This document shows, in pieces, positions 13,930 to 22,496 of a stretch of 64,000 nucleotides of DNA. Source of the DNA: an uncultured Amphritea sp. (GTDB taxonomy: Bacteria > Pseudomonadota > Gammaproteobacteria > Pseudomonadales > Balneatricaceae); the NCBI RefSeq assembly GCF_937127095.1, contig NZ_CAKZLP010000008.1:62001-126000 (forward strand). Direction: 5' to 3'. The notes below the pieces were generated by a model. That model was given only the letters and a program-made list of their open reading frames with translations. It did no database searches and was not told the DNA's origin. Within the stretch, counting starts at the first letter, position 1, and every line of letters starts with the position of its first letter. The translations under genes were made by a program, and so were the position numbers.

Positions 13930-14583
13930 ATGAAAAAAATTATTGTTTTAGCTGGCGCAATTGCGTTGGCTGGCTGTCAGTCCATGGATCCTTATACCCA
14001 GGAAGCCAAAACCAGCAATGCAACGACAGGTGCCGGCATCGGCGCTGTTGCCGGTGCCGTCCTGGGTAATGCGGTAGCCGGTAAAGGCAAACGTACTGAA
14101 GGTGCGATTGCCGGTGCGTTATTAGGCGGTGCCGTCGGTGGTGGTATTGGTTATTACATGGATCAGCAGGAGATGCTGTTGCGTCAGGAGCTGGAAGGCA
14201 CCGGTGTGCGGGTTGAACGGATTGGTGATTCGATTCGCCTGATTATGCCGGGCAATGTGACCTTCCCGACCGGGTCTTACAACATTGATCAGGGGTTCTA
14301 TCCAACCCTGAATTCAGTTGCCAAAGTACTGGTGAAATTCGATAAGACAGTCGTCAACGTTGACGGTTTCACCGATAGCACCGGCTCATTCGAAACCAAC
14401 CAGACTCTGTCTGAACGCCGCGCAGCCAGCGTTGCCCAATACCTGGGCGGTAGTGGTGTGGCACCGTTGCGGCTTCAATCCCGAGGTTATGGTGAGCGTT
14501 ACCCGGTTGCCAGTAATGATACCGCCGGTGGCCGCGCGATGAATCGTCGGGTAGAAGTTAATATTCGTGGGACGCAGAAATAA
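13930..14583 (+). CDS. OmpA-family outer-membrane lipoprotein with glycine zipper (YiaD-like)
   Basis: A 217-residue lipoprotein. It has a signal peptide with lipobox LAGC (Cys16), a Gly/Ala-rich glycine-zipper stretch at about 35-80 (GAGIGAVAGAVLG repeated in kind), and a C-terminal OmpA domain from about 105 with the peptidoglycan-binding pattern around VDGFTDSTGS and NQTLSERRA. Such proteins tether the outer membrane to the cell wall. ATG at 13930 has a good AGGAG upstream. A GTG two codons earlier is also in frame. The stop codon lies inside a perfect hairpin that opens the left hairpin array, so transcription likely ends in the array or at the terminator after it. Confidence 0.9.
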   Translation: MKKIIVLAGAIALAGCQSMDPYTQEAKTSNATTGAGIGAVAGAVLGNAVAGKGKRTEGAIAGALLGGAVGGGIGYYMDQQEMLLRQELEGTGVRVERIGDSIRLIMPGNVTFPTGSYNIDQGFYPTLNSVAKVLVKFDKTVVNVDGFTDSTGSFETNQTLSERRAASVAQYLGGSGVAPLRLQSRGYGERYPVASNDTAGGRAMNRRVEVNIRGTQK

Positions 14584-14686
14584 TTGCGGAGCAATTATTT
14601 CCAGACCGCCGCTTCGCGGCTCGCTAGACGCGACTGCGTCGCTTGCTAGTGGTTAGACGGAAACTTCGTTTCCTTGCTAGAAAAAG
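14578..14686 (+). repeat. Left hairpin array (inverted partner of 15611-15723)
   Basis: Four short hairpins in a row, each with a three-base loop. First is AAATAATTGC-GGA-GCAATTATTT (14578-14600), which spans the stop codon of the lipoprotein gene. Then come GCCGC-TTC-GCGGC (14608-14620), GCGAC-TGC-GTCGC (14630-14642) and GGAAAC-TTC-GTTTCC (14659-14673). The last three are set in a repeated frame, AGAC before the stem and TTGCTAG or TCGCTAG after it. The segment 14602-14686 recurs in inverted orientation at 15611-15697 with almost no changes except in one stem, where both arms change together. Confidence 0.9.
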
Positions 14687-14696
14687 TATAAACAAG

Positions 14697-14722
14697 AAAC
14701 CGCCTAATTGGCGGTTTTTTTT
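14697..14722 (+). terminator. Intrinsic terminator after the left hairpin array
   Basis: Stem AAACCGCC / GGCGGTTT with loop TAATT, followed by T to base 14722. It would end transcripts of the OmpA-family lipoprotein gene and insulate the downstream orphan gene. Confidence 0.9.
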
Positions 14723-14812
14723 GGAGGAAAACTGCTTTGTATAAATGCAGTCTGCATTGGAGTGATGTACGAAAAGTAATGTAAAATTATTTTGAGTAAG
14801 GATATTAGTAGG

Positions 14813-14850
14813 TTGGATAGGTGTTGCTTCTGTAGCACCTTTGGATAGGT
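14813..14850 (+). promoter_or_regulatory. Direct repeat and hairpin in the leader of the orphan gene
   Basis: The ten-mer TTGGATAGGT occurs at 14813-14822 and again at 14841-14850. Between them lies a small hairpin (GGTG...CACC, about 14820-14839). The pair sits immediately upstream of the ribosome-binding site (TAGGAG) of the orphan gene and could be an operator or leader structure. Confidence 0.35.
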
Positions 14851-14863
14851 TTTAGGAGTACAC

Positions 14864-15532
14864 ATGGATATAGTGCTAGAAAAGGGTGAAAGCGAAACAG
14901 TATTTGATTATAAAGTTAGGTGTTTGCGAACATATATCCTTTACATACAAGATCAGTTTTCTTTATCTCATACATTTGAGGTTCATCATATAGACCGCTC
15001 CATAAATGAAAGTGATATTCCTTCCAAGGGCAGTGTTTTATCCATTACAGGTGATGAGGTTCATTATTATTATGTACCCTATCAAGAGCCTGGTTCGCCA
15101 AAAGTGAGTCAATACTCTCTCAGCAGTATCTATGAGTTCATTGATGGTCCTCTTAAAACCCATTTGATTACTAAAAACGCATCGTATGATTTAGTAAAAG
15201 TAAAAGGGCTTCCTACTGAACTAAAAGACATGGTTGAGCATCTCGAAGAGCTTAAATTAGAAATAAAGCAAATTGCTAGGCAAGAACTTGATGCGTTGAA
15301 ACAAGACAAGGATGAGGGCCAAACAGATACATTCATAAACTATCTTGGCAGTGTGGAAAGTATTGATTTTAATCCTTTTGAGTGCTCTGAAAAGAAGAGA
15401 AAAGAGCTTGCTAGTTATGCTATGACGGTGTATCCATTGGCCAAACAGTATTTTACGGAGCAGCTATTAAAATTATCTCAAAGTGAAATTACCGGAAAAA
15501 TTAATAAAATCTGTTTTTGTAGAAAGGTTTGA
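14864..15532 (+). CDS. AT-rich orphan protein inside the inverted hairpin arrays
   Basis: A 222-residue protein I do not recognise. It starts at ATG 14864 with GGAG seven bases upstream. It has no signal peptide or membrane segment. A charged helical, possibly coiled-coil stretch lies at about 115-150 (rich in Glu, Leu, Lys), and the C-terminus ends in a CFCRKV tail. Codon and base use are visibly AT-richer than both flanking genes. The gene is the only cargo between two inverted hairpin arrays and between two convergent conserved genes, which suggests later insertion. Function unknown. It might be a toxin, immunity or other accessory protein, but nothing in the sequence proves that. Confidence 0.7.
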   Translation: MDIVLEKGESETVFDYKVRCLRTYILYIQDQFSLSHTFEVHHIDRSINESDIPSKGSVLSITGDEVHYYYVPYQEPGSPKVSQYSLSSIYEFIDGPLKTHLITKNASYDLVKVKGLPTELKDMVEHLEELKLEIKQIARQELDALKQDKDEGQTDTFINYLGSVESIDFNPFECSEKKRKELASYAMTVYPLAKQYFTEQLLKLSQSEITGKINKICFCRKV

Positions 15533-15610
15533 GAAGGTTTAGTTTTTTATATTTTTGCTGTTTTAGGTTTTTTATATAAAAGAGAGAGCAATATAGTTCT
15601 TTCTTCTTTG

Positions 15611-15723
15611 CTTTTTCTAGCAAGAAAAACGAAGTTTTTCGTCTAGCCACTAGCAAGCGACGCAGTCGCGTCTAGCGAGCCGCGAAGCGGCGGTCTGCCT
15701 GGTAAGCGCTCCGCGCTTACCAG
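15611..15723 (-). repeat. Right hairpin array (inverted partner of 14578-14686)
   Basis: Mirror image of the left array. Read on the plus strand it holds GAAAAAC-GAA-GTTTTTC (15624-15640), GCGAC-GCA-GTCGC (15657-15669), GCCGC-GAA-GCGGC (15679-15691) and CTGGTAAGCGC-TCC-GCGCTTACCAG (15699-15723). The last hairpin covers the stop codon of flgT and, read in the gene's direction, has the same GGA loop as the hairpin at the lipoprotein stop, but a stem made from flgT's own end. Linkers (AGAC, TTGCTAG, TCGCTAG) are identical to those of the left array. Confidence 0.9.
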
Positions 15724-16937
15724 GAAATCACGACATCGTCTGGCTGTATATTGTACAGCGCGCCATCCTCTGCAAGCCGGCCGATGGAGAACATGGGTTG
15801 AACTTCGGTGACGGTGATGGTTTTGCGGGTGTTGGCGAGTTGTACATGGCTGCGCATATCGTCGGTGAAGAAGTTTGATTTGCGGTAGACCGTGAGTTTG
15901 TCGCCCGCTTTTATGCCTGCCAGGGCTCCGGCGTTAAACCAGAGGAGGTTGTCTTCGCTTTTGGTGATGCGGGCCGAGAAGGGCATGCAGCGTAGTTCGT
16001 TATTGAGGTCGGCAGCAATCTGGTTCAACATCTCCCGGGTTTGCTTGCCGTAATCCAGTCGCCAGAATTCTGCGCTGGCAAACCCAGGGCGGGCTTCGGG
16101 TTCGAGATTCCAGCGTCCGGCGGTAGCGTACTGTTTACTGAAGAGCAATGCGCCGGAAAATCCGTCATGGATATACAGATCCAGCACCAGCGACCGCAGG
16201 TGACGTTTACTGCGATAATCCATCCGGTTATACAGATCTACCAGAATATTACGATTCGGATCGATCACCGATGAGTCGTACATAGACATATCGCGAATCA
16301 CGCCGGAGACGATGTATTGCACATCCAGCTGGCGGGTATAGTCGAGTACGGTGGTCAGCGCACCCGCGCTGAGCTGGCGGGTTGGTGCCGTAGCGGCGCT
16401 TTCCAGGACATTGAGCATGCCCGCATTCATCGCCCGCAAATTGCTGGTCTGATTGATCTGGTTGCTGAGAATATGGCTCAGCTCCGTCTGAATATTGCTT
16501 AGATAGCCGAGATTGGCCTGTTGCGGATAGAGCAGAGGAAACGCGGTGATCGCTACGGATTTCTGGTAGCCGTGCCCGGACACTCCTGCCGCGCAACCCT
16601 CTTCAAAGTCGATATCGGCGCGGATTTTAACCCATAGCATGCGCCCCTGAATTTTTTCATCGAGGATATCGATGTTGCCCACCAGCCCCAGGGTGCTGAC
16701 CTGCATATTGTCGATGCTCAGGACACCCTGGTTAATGGTCTGAGTGCTGCTGACAATAGCACTGGCCTGAAGTGATGCCTGCTGGGTGGCATTTTTGATG
16801 GCAGCCTGACGCGCGGAATCAATATCCTTGTCGAATATCAGTGCGCGCCCCTCTGCTTCCATCGTAACGGCATGCAGTGACAGGCTGAGAAGGCTGAACA
16901 ATAGTGCTGCAACGATACGCATCATAGGACTAAACAT
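15717..16937 (-). CDS. flgT: Flagellar assembly protein FlgT
   Basis: A 406-residue secreted protein: signal peptide at about 1-25, an N-terminal domain (about 25-115) with the helical ARQAAIKNATQQAS stretch, a middle domain resembling TolB-N folds, and a C-terminal beta domain from about 330. FlgT forms the H ring around the LP ring of sheathed or sodium-type polar flagella and supports assembly of the MotX/MotY T ring. Vibrio FlgT is slightly shorter. The gene is divergent from flgO-flgP, the same arrangement as in Vibrio. Alternative starts at 16925 and 16922 would trim four or five residues. The stop codon is inside the terminal hairpin of the right array. Confidence 0.88.
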   Translation of the reverse strand: MFSPMMRIVAALLFSLLSLSLHAVTMEAEGRALIFDKDIDSARQAAIKNATQQASLQASAIVSSTQTINQGVLSIDNMQVSTLGLVGNIDILDEKIQGRMLWVKIRADIDFEEGCAAGVSGHGYQKSVAITAFPLLYPQQANLGYLSNIQTELSHILSNQINQTSNLRAMNAGMLNVLESAATAPTRQLSAGALTTVLDYTRQLDVQYIVSGVIRDMSMYDSSVIDPNRNILVDLYNRMDYRSKRHLRSLVLDLYIHDGFSGALLFSKQYATAGRWNLEPEARPGFASAEFWRLDYGKQTREMLNQIAADLNNELRCMPFSARITKSEDNLLWFNAGALAGIKAGDKLTVYRKSNFFTDDMRSHVQLANTRKTITVTEVQPMFSIGRLAEDGALYNIQPDDVVISW

Positions 16938-22337: not shown

Positions 22338-22496
22338 TGGTATAAAATCGCGCTCGAAATTTATGTTTGTAAACATTTGTGTTTTAAAACTCAAATTTCA
22401 TAAATCCACACATGTTACCGACACATCTCCTTGGGTGCCGCTTGCGGTTGGGAGCTGGGGTGCATGGACGTCTAACCCTATACTTAGGAAAATATA
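22338..22496 (+). promoter_or_regulatory. rpsB promoter and leader
   Basis: An extended -10 element TGG-TATAAA lies at 22338-22346 in an otherwise AT-rich map/rpsB spacer. The roughly 140-base leader after it is unusually structured before the start codon (GGTGCCGC...GCGGTTGGGAGC region, 22433-22458). In gammaproteobacteria the rpsB leader is a target for autoregulation by ribosomal protein S2, and this leader is a candidate for that RNA. I have not matched it to a covariance model. Confidence 0.45.

What the first reader, a model, noticed from the sequence alone, without database searches (positions are those of the whole stretch)
14578..15723. Inverted pair of modular hairpin arrays bracketing a single orphan gene
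Segments 14602-14686 and 15611-15697 are inverted copies of each other. Each holds three small hairpins in the same order and with the same linkers (AGAC before, TTGCTAG or TCGCTAG after). Between them are one AT-rich orphan gene and a terminator; outside are two convergent conserved genes. The layout looks like a cassette, or an insertion into an intergenic spacer that already carried such repeats. I do not know a named element with this pattern.
Basis: seen in the sequence. Interest (0 to 1): 0.78.

Follow-up and report, generated by a model that had tools for sequence, protein, structure and literature searches.

The report
Hairpin arrays framing a swappable gene
In the marine bacterium Amphritea, two neighbouring genes that point at each other each end in a row of small hairpin repeats, seen only in this genus among the genomes searched, and the gap between them holds different genes, or none, in different relatives, likely because such gene ends tolerate incoming DNA.

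Summary
In detail: two inverted arrays of three hairpins (14603-14680, 15617-15696) lie behind the stop codons of the convergent ompA-lipoprotein and flgT genes. The hairpins belong to a dispersed family confined, in what was searched, to Amphritea: linkers are constant, while stems vary and stay complementary (83 of 93 sites, 14 expected). Arrays sit at gene 3' ends, so convergent genes give inverted pairs. The orphan is in 1 of 57 genomes. The same gap holds other genes, or none, in relatives. G000 and A. pacifica are alike only about 41 bases past each array. So the arrays belong to the flanking genes, and the cargo changes between them. The closest known kind is REP repeats; the GTAG and CGTC tags and an integron origin were tested and not met; a RAYT link was inconclusive. 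The strangest part is the mirror hairpin over the stop codon, whose stem follows the coding end in several, not all, species; replication template switching likely made it. RNA 3'-end protection and cargo exchange by recombination are inferred.

The parts
13930..14583 (+). ompA-family lipoprotein gene, left conserved flank
   Evidence: Pfam OmpA 68.9 bits and glycine zipper; orthologue next to flgT in the relatives read
14577..14601 (+). mirror hairpin over the stop codon: GAAATAATTGC-GGA-GCAATTATTTC
   Evidence: 5' arm is coding end plus stop (14581-14583)
14603..14627 (+). hairpin module 1 (CGCCGC arm, TTC loop)
14626..14649 (+). hairpin module 2 (GCGAC arm, TGC loop)
14655..14680 (+). hairpin module 3 (GGAAAC arm, TTC loop)
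14697..14722 (+). intrinsic terminator of the ompA-lipoprotein gene; similarity to A. pacifica and G009 ends here
14864..15532 (+). orphan ORF, 222 aa, AT-rich, lineage-specific cargo
   Evidence: no Pfam; 1 of 57 genomes; one database relative, 97%
15577..15616 (-). 40 nt inside the flgT array that A. pacifica shares (87.5%); cargo-side limit of the conserved flgT 3' end
15617..15644 (-). hairpin module 3' (GAAAAAC arm, TTC loop)
15650..15673 (-). hairpin module 2' (GCGAC arm, TGC loop)
15672..15696 (-). hairpin module 1' (CGCCGC arm, TTC loop)
15698..15724 (-). mirror hairpin over the flgT stop codon: CCTGGTAAGCGC-GGA-GCGCTTACCAGG
15717..16937 (-). flgT, right conserved flank
   Evidence: Pfam FlgT_N, FlgT_M, FlgT_C; found in 17 of 17 genus genomes

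Best explanation
Each array is a row of short hairpins from a repeat family seen only in Amphritea among the genomes searched, placed directly behind the stop codon of a conserved gene (ompA-lipoprotein or flgT), and the AT-rich orphan is a lineage-specific gene in the gap between these two gene ends, a gap that holds other genes or none in relatives; the arrays likely act as RNA structures at mRNA 3' ends, and the cargo was likely exchanged by recombination through the conserved flanks. Shown: the modules recur at gene 3' ends, keep constant linkers (AGAC or AGAAC before, TTGCTAG or TCGCTAG after), keep their stems complementary while the stem sequence changes, and are kept at flgT and ompA-lipoprotein in species whose cargo differs. 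Shown: the outermost hairpin of some arrays is a mirror copy of the host gene's last codons across the stop codon, with different stems in different species. Inferred: folded in the transcript, the hairpins together with a terminator shield the 3' end from exonucleases and limit read-through between convergent genes, which makes the gap a tolerant landing place. Inferred: replication template switching (fold-back copying) created the mirror stems and helps to keep stems paired.
For: Dispersed family: 56 BLAST matches, 46 exact units against 6 reversed. Genus-limited: tight pattern 62 times in G000 and in 0 of 389 other genomes of the order; in the family 4 of 99 genomes, all Amphritea (9 Amphritea in that draw). 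Pairing kept: 83 of 93 sites against 14.1 expected. Gene-end place: convergent 26, tandem 30, divergent 0 of 71 clusters in G000; 26, 20, 2 of 54 in G009; the AGAC end is the nearer one to its own stop in 20 of 26 convergent cases in each. Terminators downstream 30, upstream 6 of 71; 16 and 7 of 54. Cargo changes while arrays stay. Mirror hairpins of 8 bp or more: 6 of 62 array-linked stops, 2 of 407 others; several stems at flgT and ompA-lipoprotein. RNA fold of the ompA 3' end z -3.73. Template switching as a maker of hairpins is in print (PMC8794818, abstract and opening seen).
Against: No transcript data. Direction is not strict: tandem antisense 12 against sense 18 in G000 (p 0.36) and 5 against 15 in G009. 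A terminator-like site was detected downstream in only 30 of 71 and 16 of 54 clusters. Mirrors are not always kept: at G006 ompA the coding arm changed and the mirror did not, and at rlmB one mirror is inherited by four species and decays in others, so re-making in each species is not general. Three-base loops T-N-C are not a known RNA favourite; on the other strand they read G-N-A, a stable DNA loop (recalled). Arrays differ from the cargo breakpoints by about 41 bases only at flgT/ompA; at L022/L091 similarity runs 121 bases on one side.
Confidence: 0.6

Rival explanations
1. The two inverted arrays are the ends of a mobile cassette: a recombinase or transposase recognises the hairpins and moves array-gene-array as a unit.
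For: Tail-to-tail array pairs are common (23 of 49 neighbouring pairs in G000, 17 of 36 in G009), and some bracket lineage-specific genes.
Against: Arrays stay at the same gene ends in species with different cargo; similarity continues past the arrays; at flgT and ompA-lipoprotein decayed or single arrays occur without the other (G011); no enzyme linked; none in viral contigs.
Confidence: 0.12
2. REP-like repeats spread as single-stranded units by a Y1 (RAYT) transposase; the arrays are selfish and have no function at gene ends.
For: Y1 genes in 12 of 17 Amphritea genomes; short palindromes at gene 3' ends are typical of REPs (PMC3733652).
Against: Of 8 Y1 loci read with 1.5 kb flanks, 2 hold a single module-like hairpin and none is bracketed by modules. 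Y1 and modules do not go together: G008 has modules and no Y1 hit, G007 and G014 have Y1 and no hairpin module match, G010 only two matches without a hairpin. Stems vary freely, which does not fit a stem-reading enzyme.
Confidence: 0.15
3. The arrays are attC-like sites of a chromosomal integron and the genes are its cassettes.
For: Integron integrase over the curated cut-off in 7 of 17 genomes, G000 included.
Against: Four integrase regions read (G000, G009 twice, G015): one chance-like module hit, not at a cassette. G006 and G011 have modules without an integrase over the cut-off, G003 the reverse. Modules lie behind core genes such as rlmB.
Confidence: 0.03
4. The hairpins act as DNA: extruded or single-stranded hairpins bound by a protein (supercoiling, chromosome structure or replication), not as RNA.
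For: Loops are T-N-C in 103 of 121 modules, that is G-N-A on the other strand, a very stable DNA loop (recalled); about half of the clusters lie in convergent gaps where supercoils meet.
Against: Both DNA strands fold about equally (-22.0 and -22.7 kcal/mol); the AGAC end tends to face its own stop codon, which a two-sided DNA site would not need.
Confidence: 0.15

Closest known systems
REP repeats, GTAG and CGTC super-families (Di Nocera et al. 2013, PMC3733652; abstract, sections 5 and 15 and 12 passages read)
   Same: Short palindromes, many copies, between convergent and same-direction genes, close behind stop codons, stem variants that stay complementary; CGTC families also lack a known transposase.
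   Different: Neither tag; stems of 2-8 bp with three-base loops; head-to-tail arrays, which the paper calls absent or rare in most genomes; mirror hairpin of the host gene's end; gaps with exchangeable genes.
Template-switch made hairpins (Monttinen and Loytynoja 2022, PMC8794818; abstract and opening seen)
   Same: Perfect stems made as reverse-complement copies of nearby sequence, multi-base compensatory change.
   Different: There shown in RNA genes; here proposed for bacterial gene ends across stop codons, and in a repeated family.
Minimal mobile elements of Neisseria (recalled; only a search listing seen)
   Same: Different genes between the same two conserved genes in related strains, no enzyme of their own.
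   Different: Here the gap is framed by genus-specific hairpin arrays; exchange by transformation was not tested.
Chromosomal integron gene cassettes (recalled)
   Same: Structured repeat behind a gene, exchangeable single genes, integrase present in some of these genomes.
   Different: Modules are absent from the integrase regions read and sit behind core genes in the chromosome.

Membership tests
REP, GTAG super-family | unpaired GTAG tag at one end | tested here: not met
   module ends are AGAC/AGAAC and TTGCTAG/TCGCTAG/TGCTAG; tag definition from PMC3733652
REP, GTAG super-family | RAYT gene flanked by the repeats | tested here: inconclusive
   8 Y1 loci of 8 returned read: none bracketed, 2 with one module-like hairpin within 1.5 kb; 26 matches in all were listed, so most Y1 loci were not read
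REP, CGTC super-family | CGTC tag, stems of 8-9 bp, loops of 4-5 bases, tail mostly CCA | tested here: not met
   the commonest modules have stems of 5-6 bp, loops of 3, no CCA tail; definition from PMC3733652 passages
REP (general) | short palindrome in many copies, mostly behind genes | tested here: met
Integron attC | repeat follows cassettes next to an integron integrase | tested here: not met
   four integrase regions: one chance-like module hit
Transposon or cassette with terminal inverted repeats | cargo junctions at the outer ends of the repeats, with empty sites | tested here: not met
   similarity goes about 41 nt inside each array between G000 and A. pacifica; arrays kept with different cargo
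Minimal mobile element | different genes between the same conserved genes | tested here: met
   flgT/ompA-lipoprotein gap; two further gaps
Minimal mobile element | exchange by transformation and flank homology | not testable with these tools
   only an indirect trace: a decayed second flgT 3' end beyond the cargo in G006

The most novel reading that the evidence does not exclude
Amphritea has an active process that writes mirror images of protein genes' last codons across their stop codons and extends them into rows of hairpins: gene 3' ends are rebuilt as structured, insulated ends by fold-back copying, and convergent pairs of such ends become docking slots where accessory genes are exchanged.
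Probability: 0.25. Interest if true: 0.82.

Novelty: new variant of a known kind. Interest (0 to 1): 0.6.

Why it matters
The family gives a natural record of how perfect hairpins arise and change: linkers stay fixed while stems swap, and coding ends are mirrored across stop codons with different stems in sister species. That makes the open question of where REP-like repeats without a transposase come from directly testable. It also ties structured gene ends to gaps where accessory genes turn over, which would help to explain why orphan genes appear between convergent core genes.

Tried and rejected
Rejected: chance repeats; integron attC; RAYT-bracketed REPs are not supported but not excluded. 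Rfam at gathering threshold gave only t44 RNA elsewhere in the window. The tight pattern was in no viral contig. Four cargo ORFs (G000 orphan, A. pacifica 136 aa, G009 182 aa, G011 216 aa): PADLOC 0 of 4, PHROGs 1 of 4, that one of unknown function. A fold of the orphan from two sequences had mean pLDDT 45.5 and was not used. I first thought that the mirror hairpin is re-made in each species; rlmB showed that it can be inherited and decay. I first counted the L015/L081 gap as cargo present against absent; it is a tandem expansion of a ~127-bp unit. In one search the gap lengths of G015, G005 and G003 came out as 0 because of orientation; one search gives the right ones.

Literature: searches listed no paper on these Amphritea repeats or on mirrored coding ends in what I saw (listings with the starts of abstracts; two papers opened in part). 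Other wording or papers not held may do so.

Limits of the counts: the loci were mostly chosen around matches, so densities are not genome-wide; ORFs come from a simple length-based caller of mine; the module finder asks for pairing, one search does not for the three variable pairs. L017 and L093 are orthologous and both count. In one search one of the four gaps with arrays has a single doubtful module (window 50279) and one has modules in G000 only.

Full report
Observation. Each consists of three hairpins with constant linkers; the third differs between the sides (GGAAAC/GTTTCC left, GAAAAAC/GTTTTTC right) yet stays paired. A fourth hairpin on each outer side was missed. At ompA-lipoprotein it reads GAAATAATTGC-GGA-GCAATTATTTC and at flgT CCTGGTAAGCGC-GGA-GCGCTTACCAGG; each 5' arm is made of the gene's last codons, its stop and the few bases behind it.

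Where else. BLAST of the left array gave 56 matches in the window's own genome. The loose pattern CTAGACG..TTGCTAG gave 46 sites there against 6 for the reversed pattern; in the 57 genomes (own included) 16 have a match, 12 of the genus and 4 outside with one site each; of these four only one sequence was listed, and it has no hairpin. The matches in G010 (2) and G014 (1) have no hairpin either. The tight pattern AGACGNNNCTNCGNNNCTTGCTAG hits G000 62 times and none of 389 other genomes of the order; in the family, 4 of 99 genomes, all of the window's genus (9 genomes of the genus were in that draw). Named loci place the genus as Amphritea (A. atlantica, A. pacifica, A. opalescens, A. balenae and others). 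No viral contig carries it.

Structure. In loci of G000 and G009, with the three variable stem pairs left free, 83 of 93 sites pair in all three, against 14.1 expected when the 3' arms are dealt at random; all four Watson-Crick types occur at pairs 1 and 2. Loops are T-N-C in 103 of 121 modules. At the same gene end in different species the scaffold stays and stems are exchanged: behind rlmB (named by eye from its sequence), G000, G006 and G011 share a first module with a GGGGAG stem but have GTCAC, GCTGC and GCGAC as the second; G000 and G009 show other swaps, and the ompA arrays align across five species. The ompA 3' end folds as RNA at -56.4 kcal/mol, z -3.73.

Place. With ORFs of 130 aa or more, G000 has 71 clusters: 26 in convergent gaps, 18 tandem sense, 12 tandem antisense, 0 divergent, 13 at a locus edge, 2 inside an ORF. 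G009 has 54: 26, 15, 5, 2, 5 and 1. In convergent gaps the AGAC end is the nearer one to its own stop in 20 of 26 in both. Terminator-like sites lie downstream of 30 and upstream of 6 of 71 clusters, and of 16 and 7 of 54 in G009. So these are gene-end elements with a preferred, not strict, direction, and inverted pairs follow from convergent genes: tail-to-tail pairs are 23 of 49 neighbouring pairs in G000 and 17 of 36 in G009.

The slot. flgT was found in 17 of 17 genus genomes. Between the stop codons of flgT and ompA-lipoprotein: G000, 1133 bp with the 222-aa orphan; G016 (A. atlantica DSM 18887) and A. pacifica, 904 bp with a 136-aa ORF; G006, 4536 bp with a multicopper oxidase and a GGDEF protein; G009, 5931 bp with a low-molecular-weight phosphatase-like ORF, and a reverse transcriptase and an IS110-like transposase named by eye; G011, 1619 bp with a 216-aa ORF and modules on the ompA side only; G010 and G014, 2151 and 2297 bp with two ORFs (one GGDEF-like by eye) and no module; G005, 418 bp with one module-like hairpin; G001, G002, G003 and G012, 80-86 bp; G008 76, G007 73 and G015 14 bp, no module. 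G013 and G004 run off their contigs. Remnants of arrays seem to be left in G014, G008 and on the flgT side of G011 (read by eye). The orphan is in 1 of 57 genomes and has one relative in 5.8 billion proteins, 97% identical, on a 1-kb metagenome contig. Between G000 and A. pacifica the gaps are alike only for 41 nt at the ompA array and 40 nt at the flgT array; between G000 and G009 only for 41 nt at the ompA array. On the ompA side this ends at the terminator's T run. In G006 a decayed second flgT 3' end with a decayed array lies beyond the oxidase, which suggests entry of DNA through flgT homology.

Is the slot general? Of 6 array-bracketed gaps with both flanks matched between G000 and G009, 3 differ in gene content (flgT/ompA; L018/L082, where G009 has a HAD-type hydrolase; L022/L091, a DUF2846-like protein below Pfam's cut-off against an ion-channel-like protein), 1 differs by about ten copies of a ~127-bp unit, and 2 have no ORF of 70 aa in either. 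On 148 kb of contig C8, gaps whose length differs by more than 300 bp are 3 of 4 convergent with arrays, 1 of 6 convergent without, 2 of 9 divergent and 1 of 54 tandem. These numbers are small, so a link between arrays and cargo turnover is suggested, not shown.

Mirror hairpins. A perfect hairpin of 8 bp or more over the stop codon is found at 6 of 62 array-linked stops and 2 of 407 others. In the loci of G000 and G009 and six other loci, among first modules, an adjoining hairpin of 6 bp or more occurs in 10 of 31 preceded by C, 1 of 2 by A, 0 of 2 by G and 2 of 103 by T; of the 11 preceded by C or A, 10 end exactly one base before AGA(A)C. At flgT, 5 of 17 sequences (A. pacifica included, G004 not) have a perfect arm of 8 or more, with stems CCTGGTAAGCGC (twice), TGTCGTGATCTC, GCCTGGTAATAAGCG and GCCACTGA; 3 more reach 12-13 bp with one mismatch. 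At ompA-lipoprotein 5 of 16 do, with stems GAAATAATTGC (three times), ACAATAATTGC and, in A. balenae, ACACAACAATAACG. Shuffling the 40 nt behind the stop gives 8 or more in 5 of 9900 trials. The four outgroup-like genomes G001, G002, G003 and G012 have none at either gene. Against a simple rule: G006 ompA has a changed coding arm and an unchanged mirror, and rlmB shows one 13-bp mirror shared by four species, a 15-bp form in G007, decay in two (read by eye) and no such hairpin in the other ten.

Mechanism. The reading that fits most is gene-end RNA structure, made and mended in part by template switching, with the gap between two such ends serving as an insertion slot. Shown: place, pairing, stem swaps, cargo change, mirrors. 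Inferred: the RNA role, template switching, recombination. By family it is REP-like but fails the tags of both described super-families (PMC3733652) and forms head-to-tail arrays; hence a new variant of a known kind.

Noticed in passing
L049:9477-9760 (G006, beyond the oxidase): A decayed second flgT 3' end followed by a decayed hairpin array, as a single crossover at flgT would leave.
   Followed up: partly
G000:C60:203525-204466 (L076:13511-14488): Integron integrase over the curated cut-off; G009 has two and G015 one, followed by many small ORFs. No hairpin modules at these cassettes.
   Followed up: partly
window 22389-22476 +: t44 RNA (Rfam RF00127, 63.4 bits).
   Followed up: no
L081:14625-15884 against L015:13868-14022: A ~127-bp unit present about once in G000 and about ten times in tandem in G009 between the same two genes.
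   Followed up: partly
L009:6286-6475: A run of six modules head to tail, mostly of two stem types, upstream of a cluster of ORFs without close core neighbours.
   Followed up: no
ends of G000 contigs C14, C30, C46, C69, C76, C77, C83: Modules lie within 500 bases of these contig ends, and several arrays have upstream sequence that is repeated in the genome of G009, so the assembly probably breaks at repeats beside them.
   Followed up: no
L010:8590-8620, L061: Other palindromes with a GTAG-like end (the Pseudomonas type of REP, by recall) lie near modules and beside the 153-aa Y1 gene of G009.
   Followed up: no
L015:591-1213 and L009:5578-6159: Small gene pairs that look like toxin-antitoxin pairs (by eye) next to arrays.
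   Followed up: no
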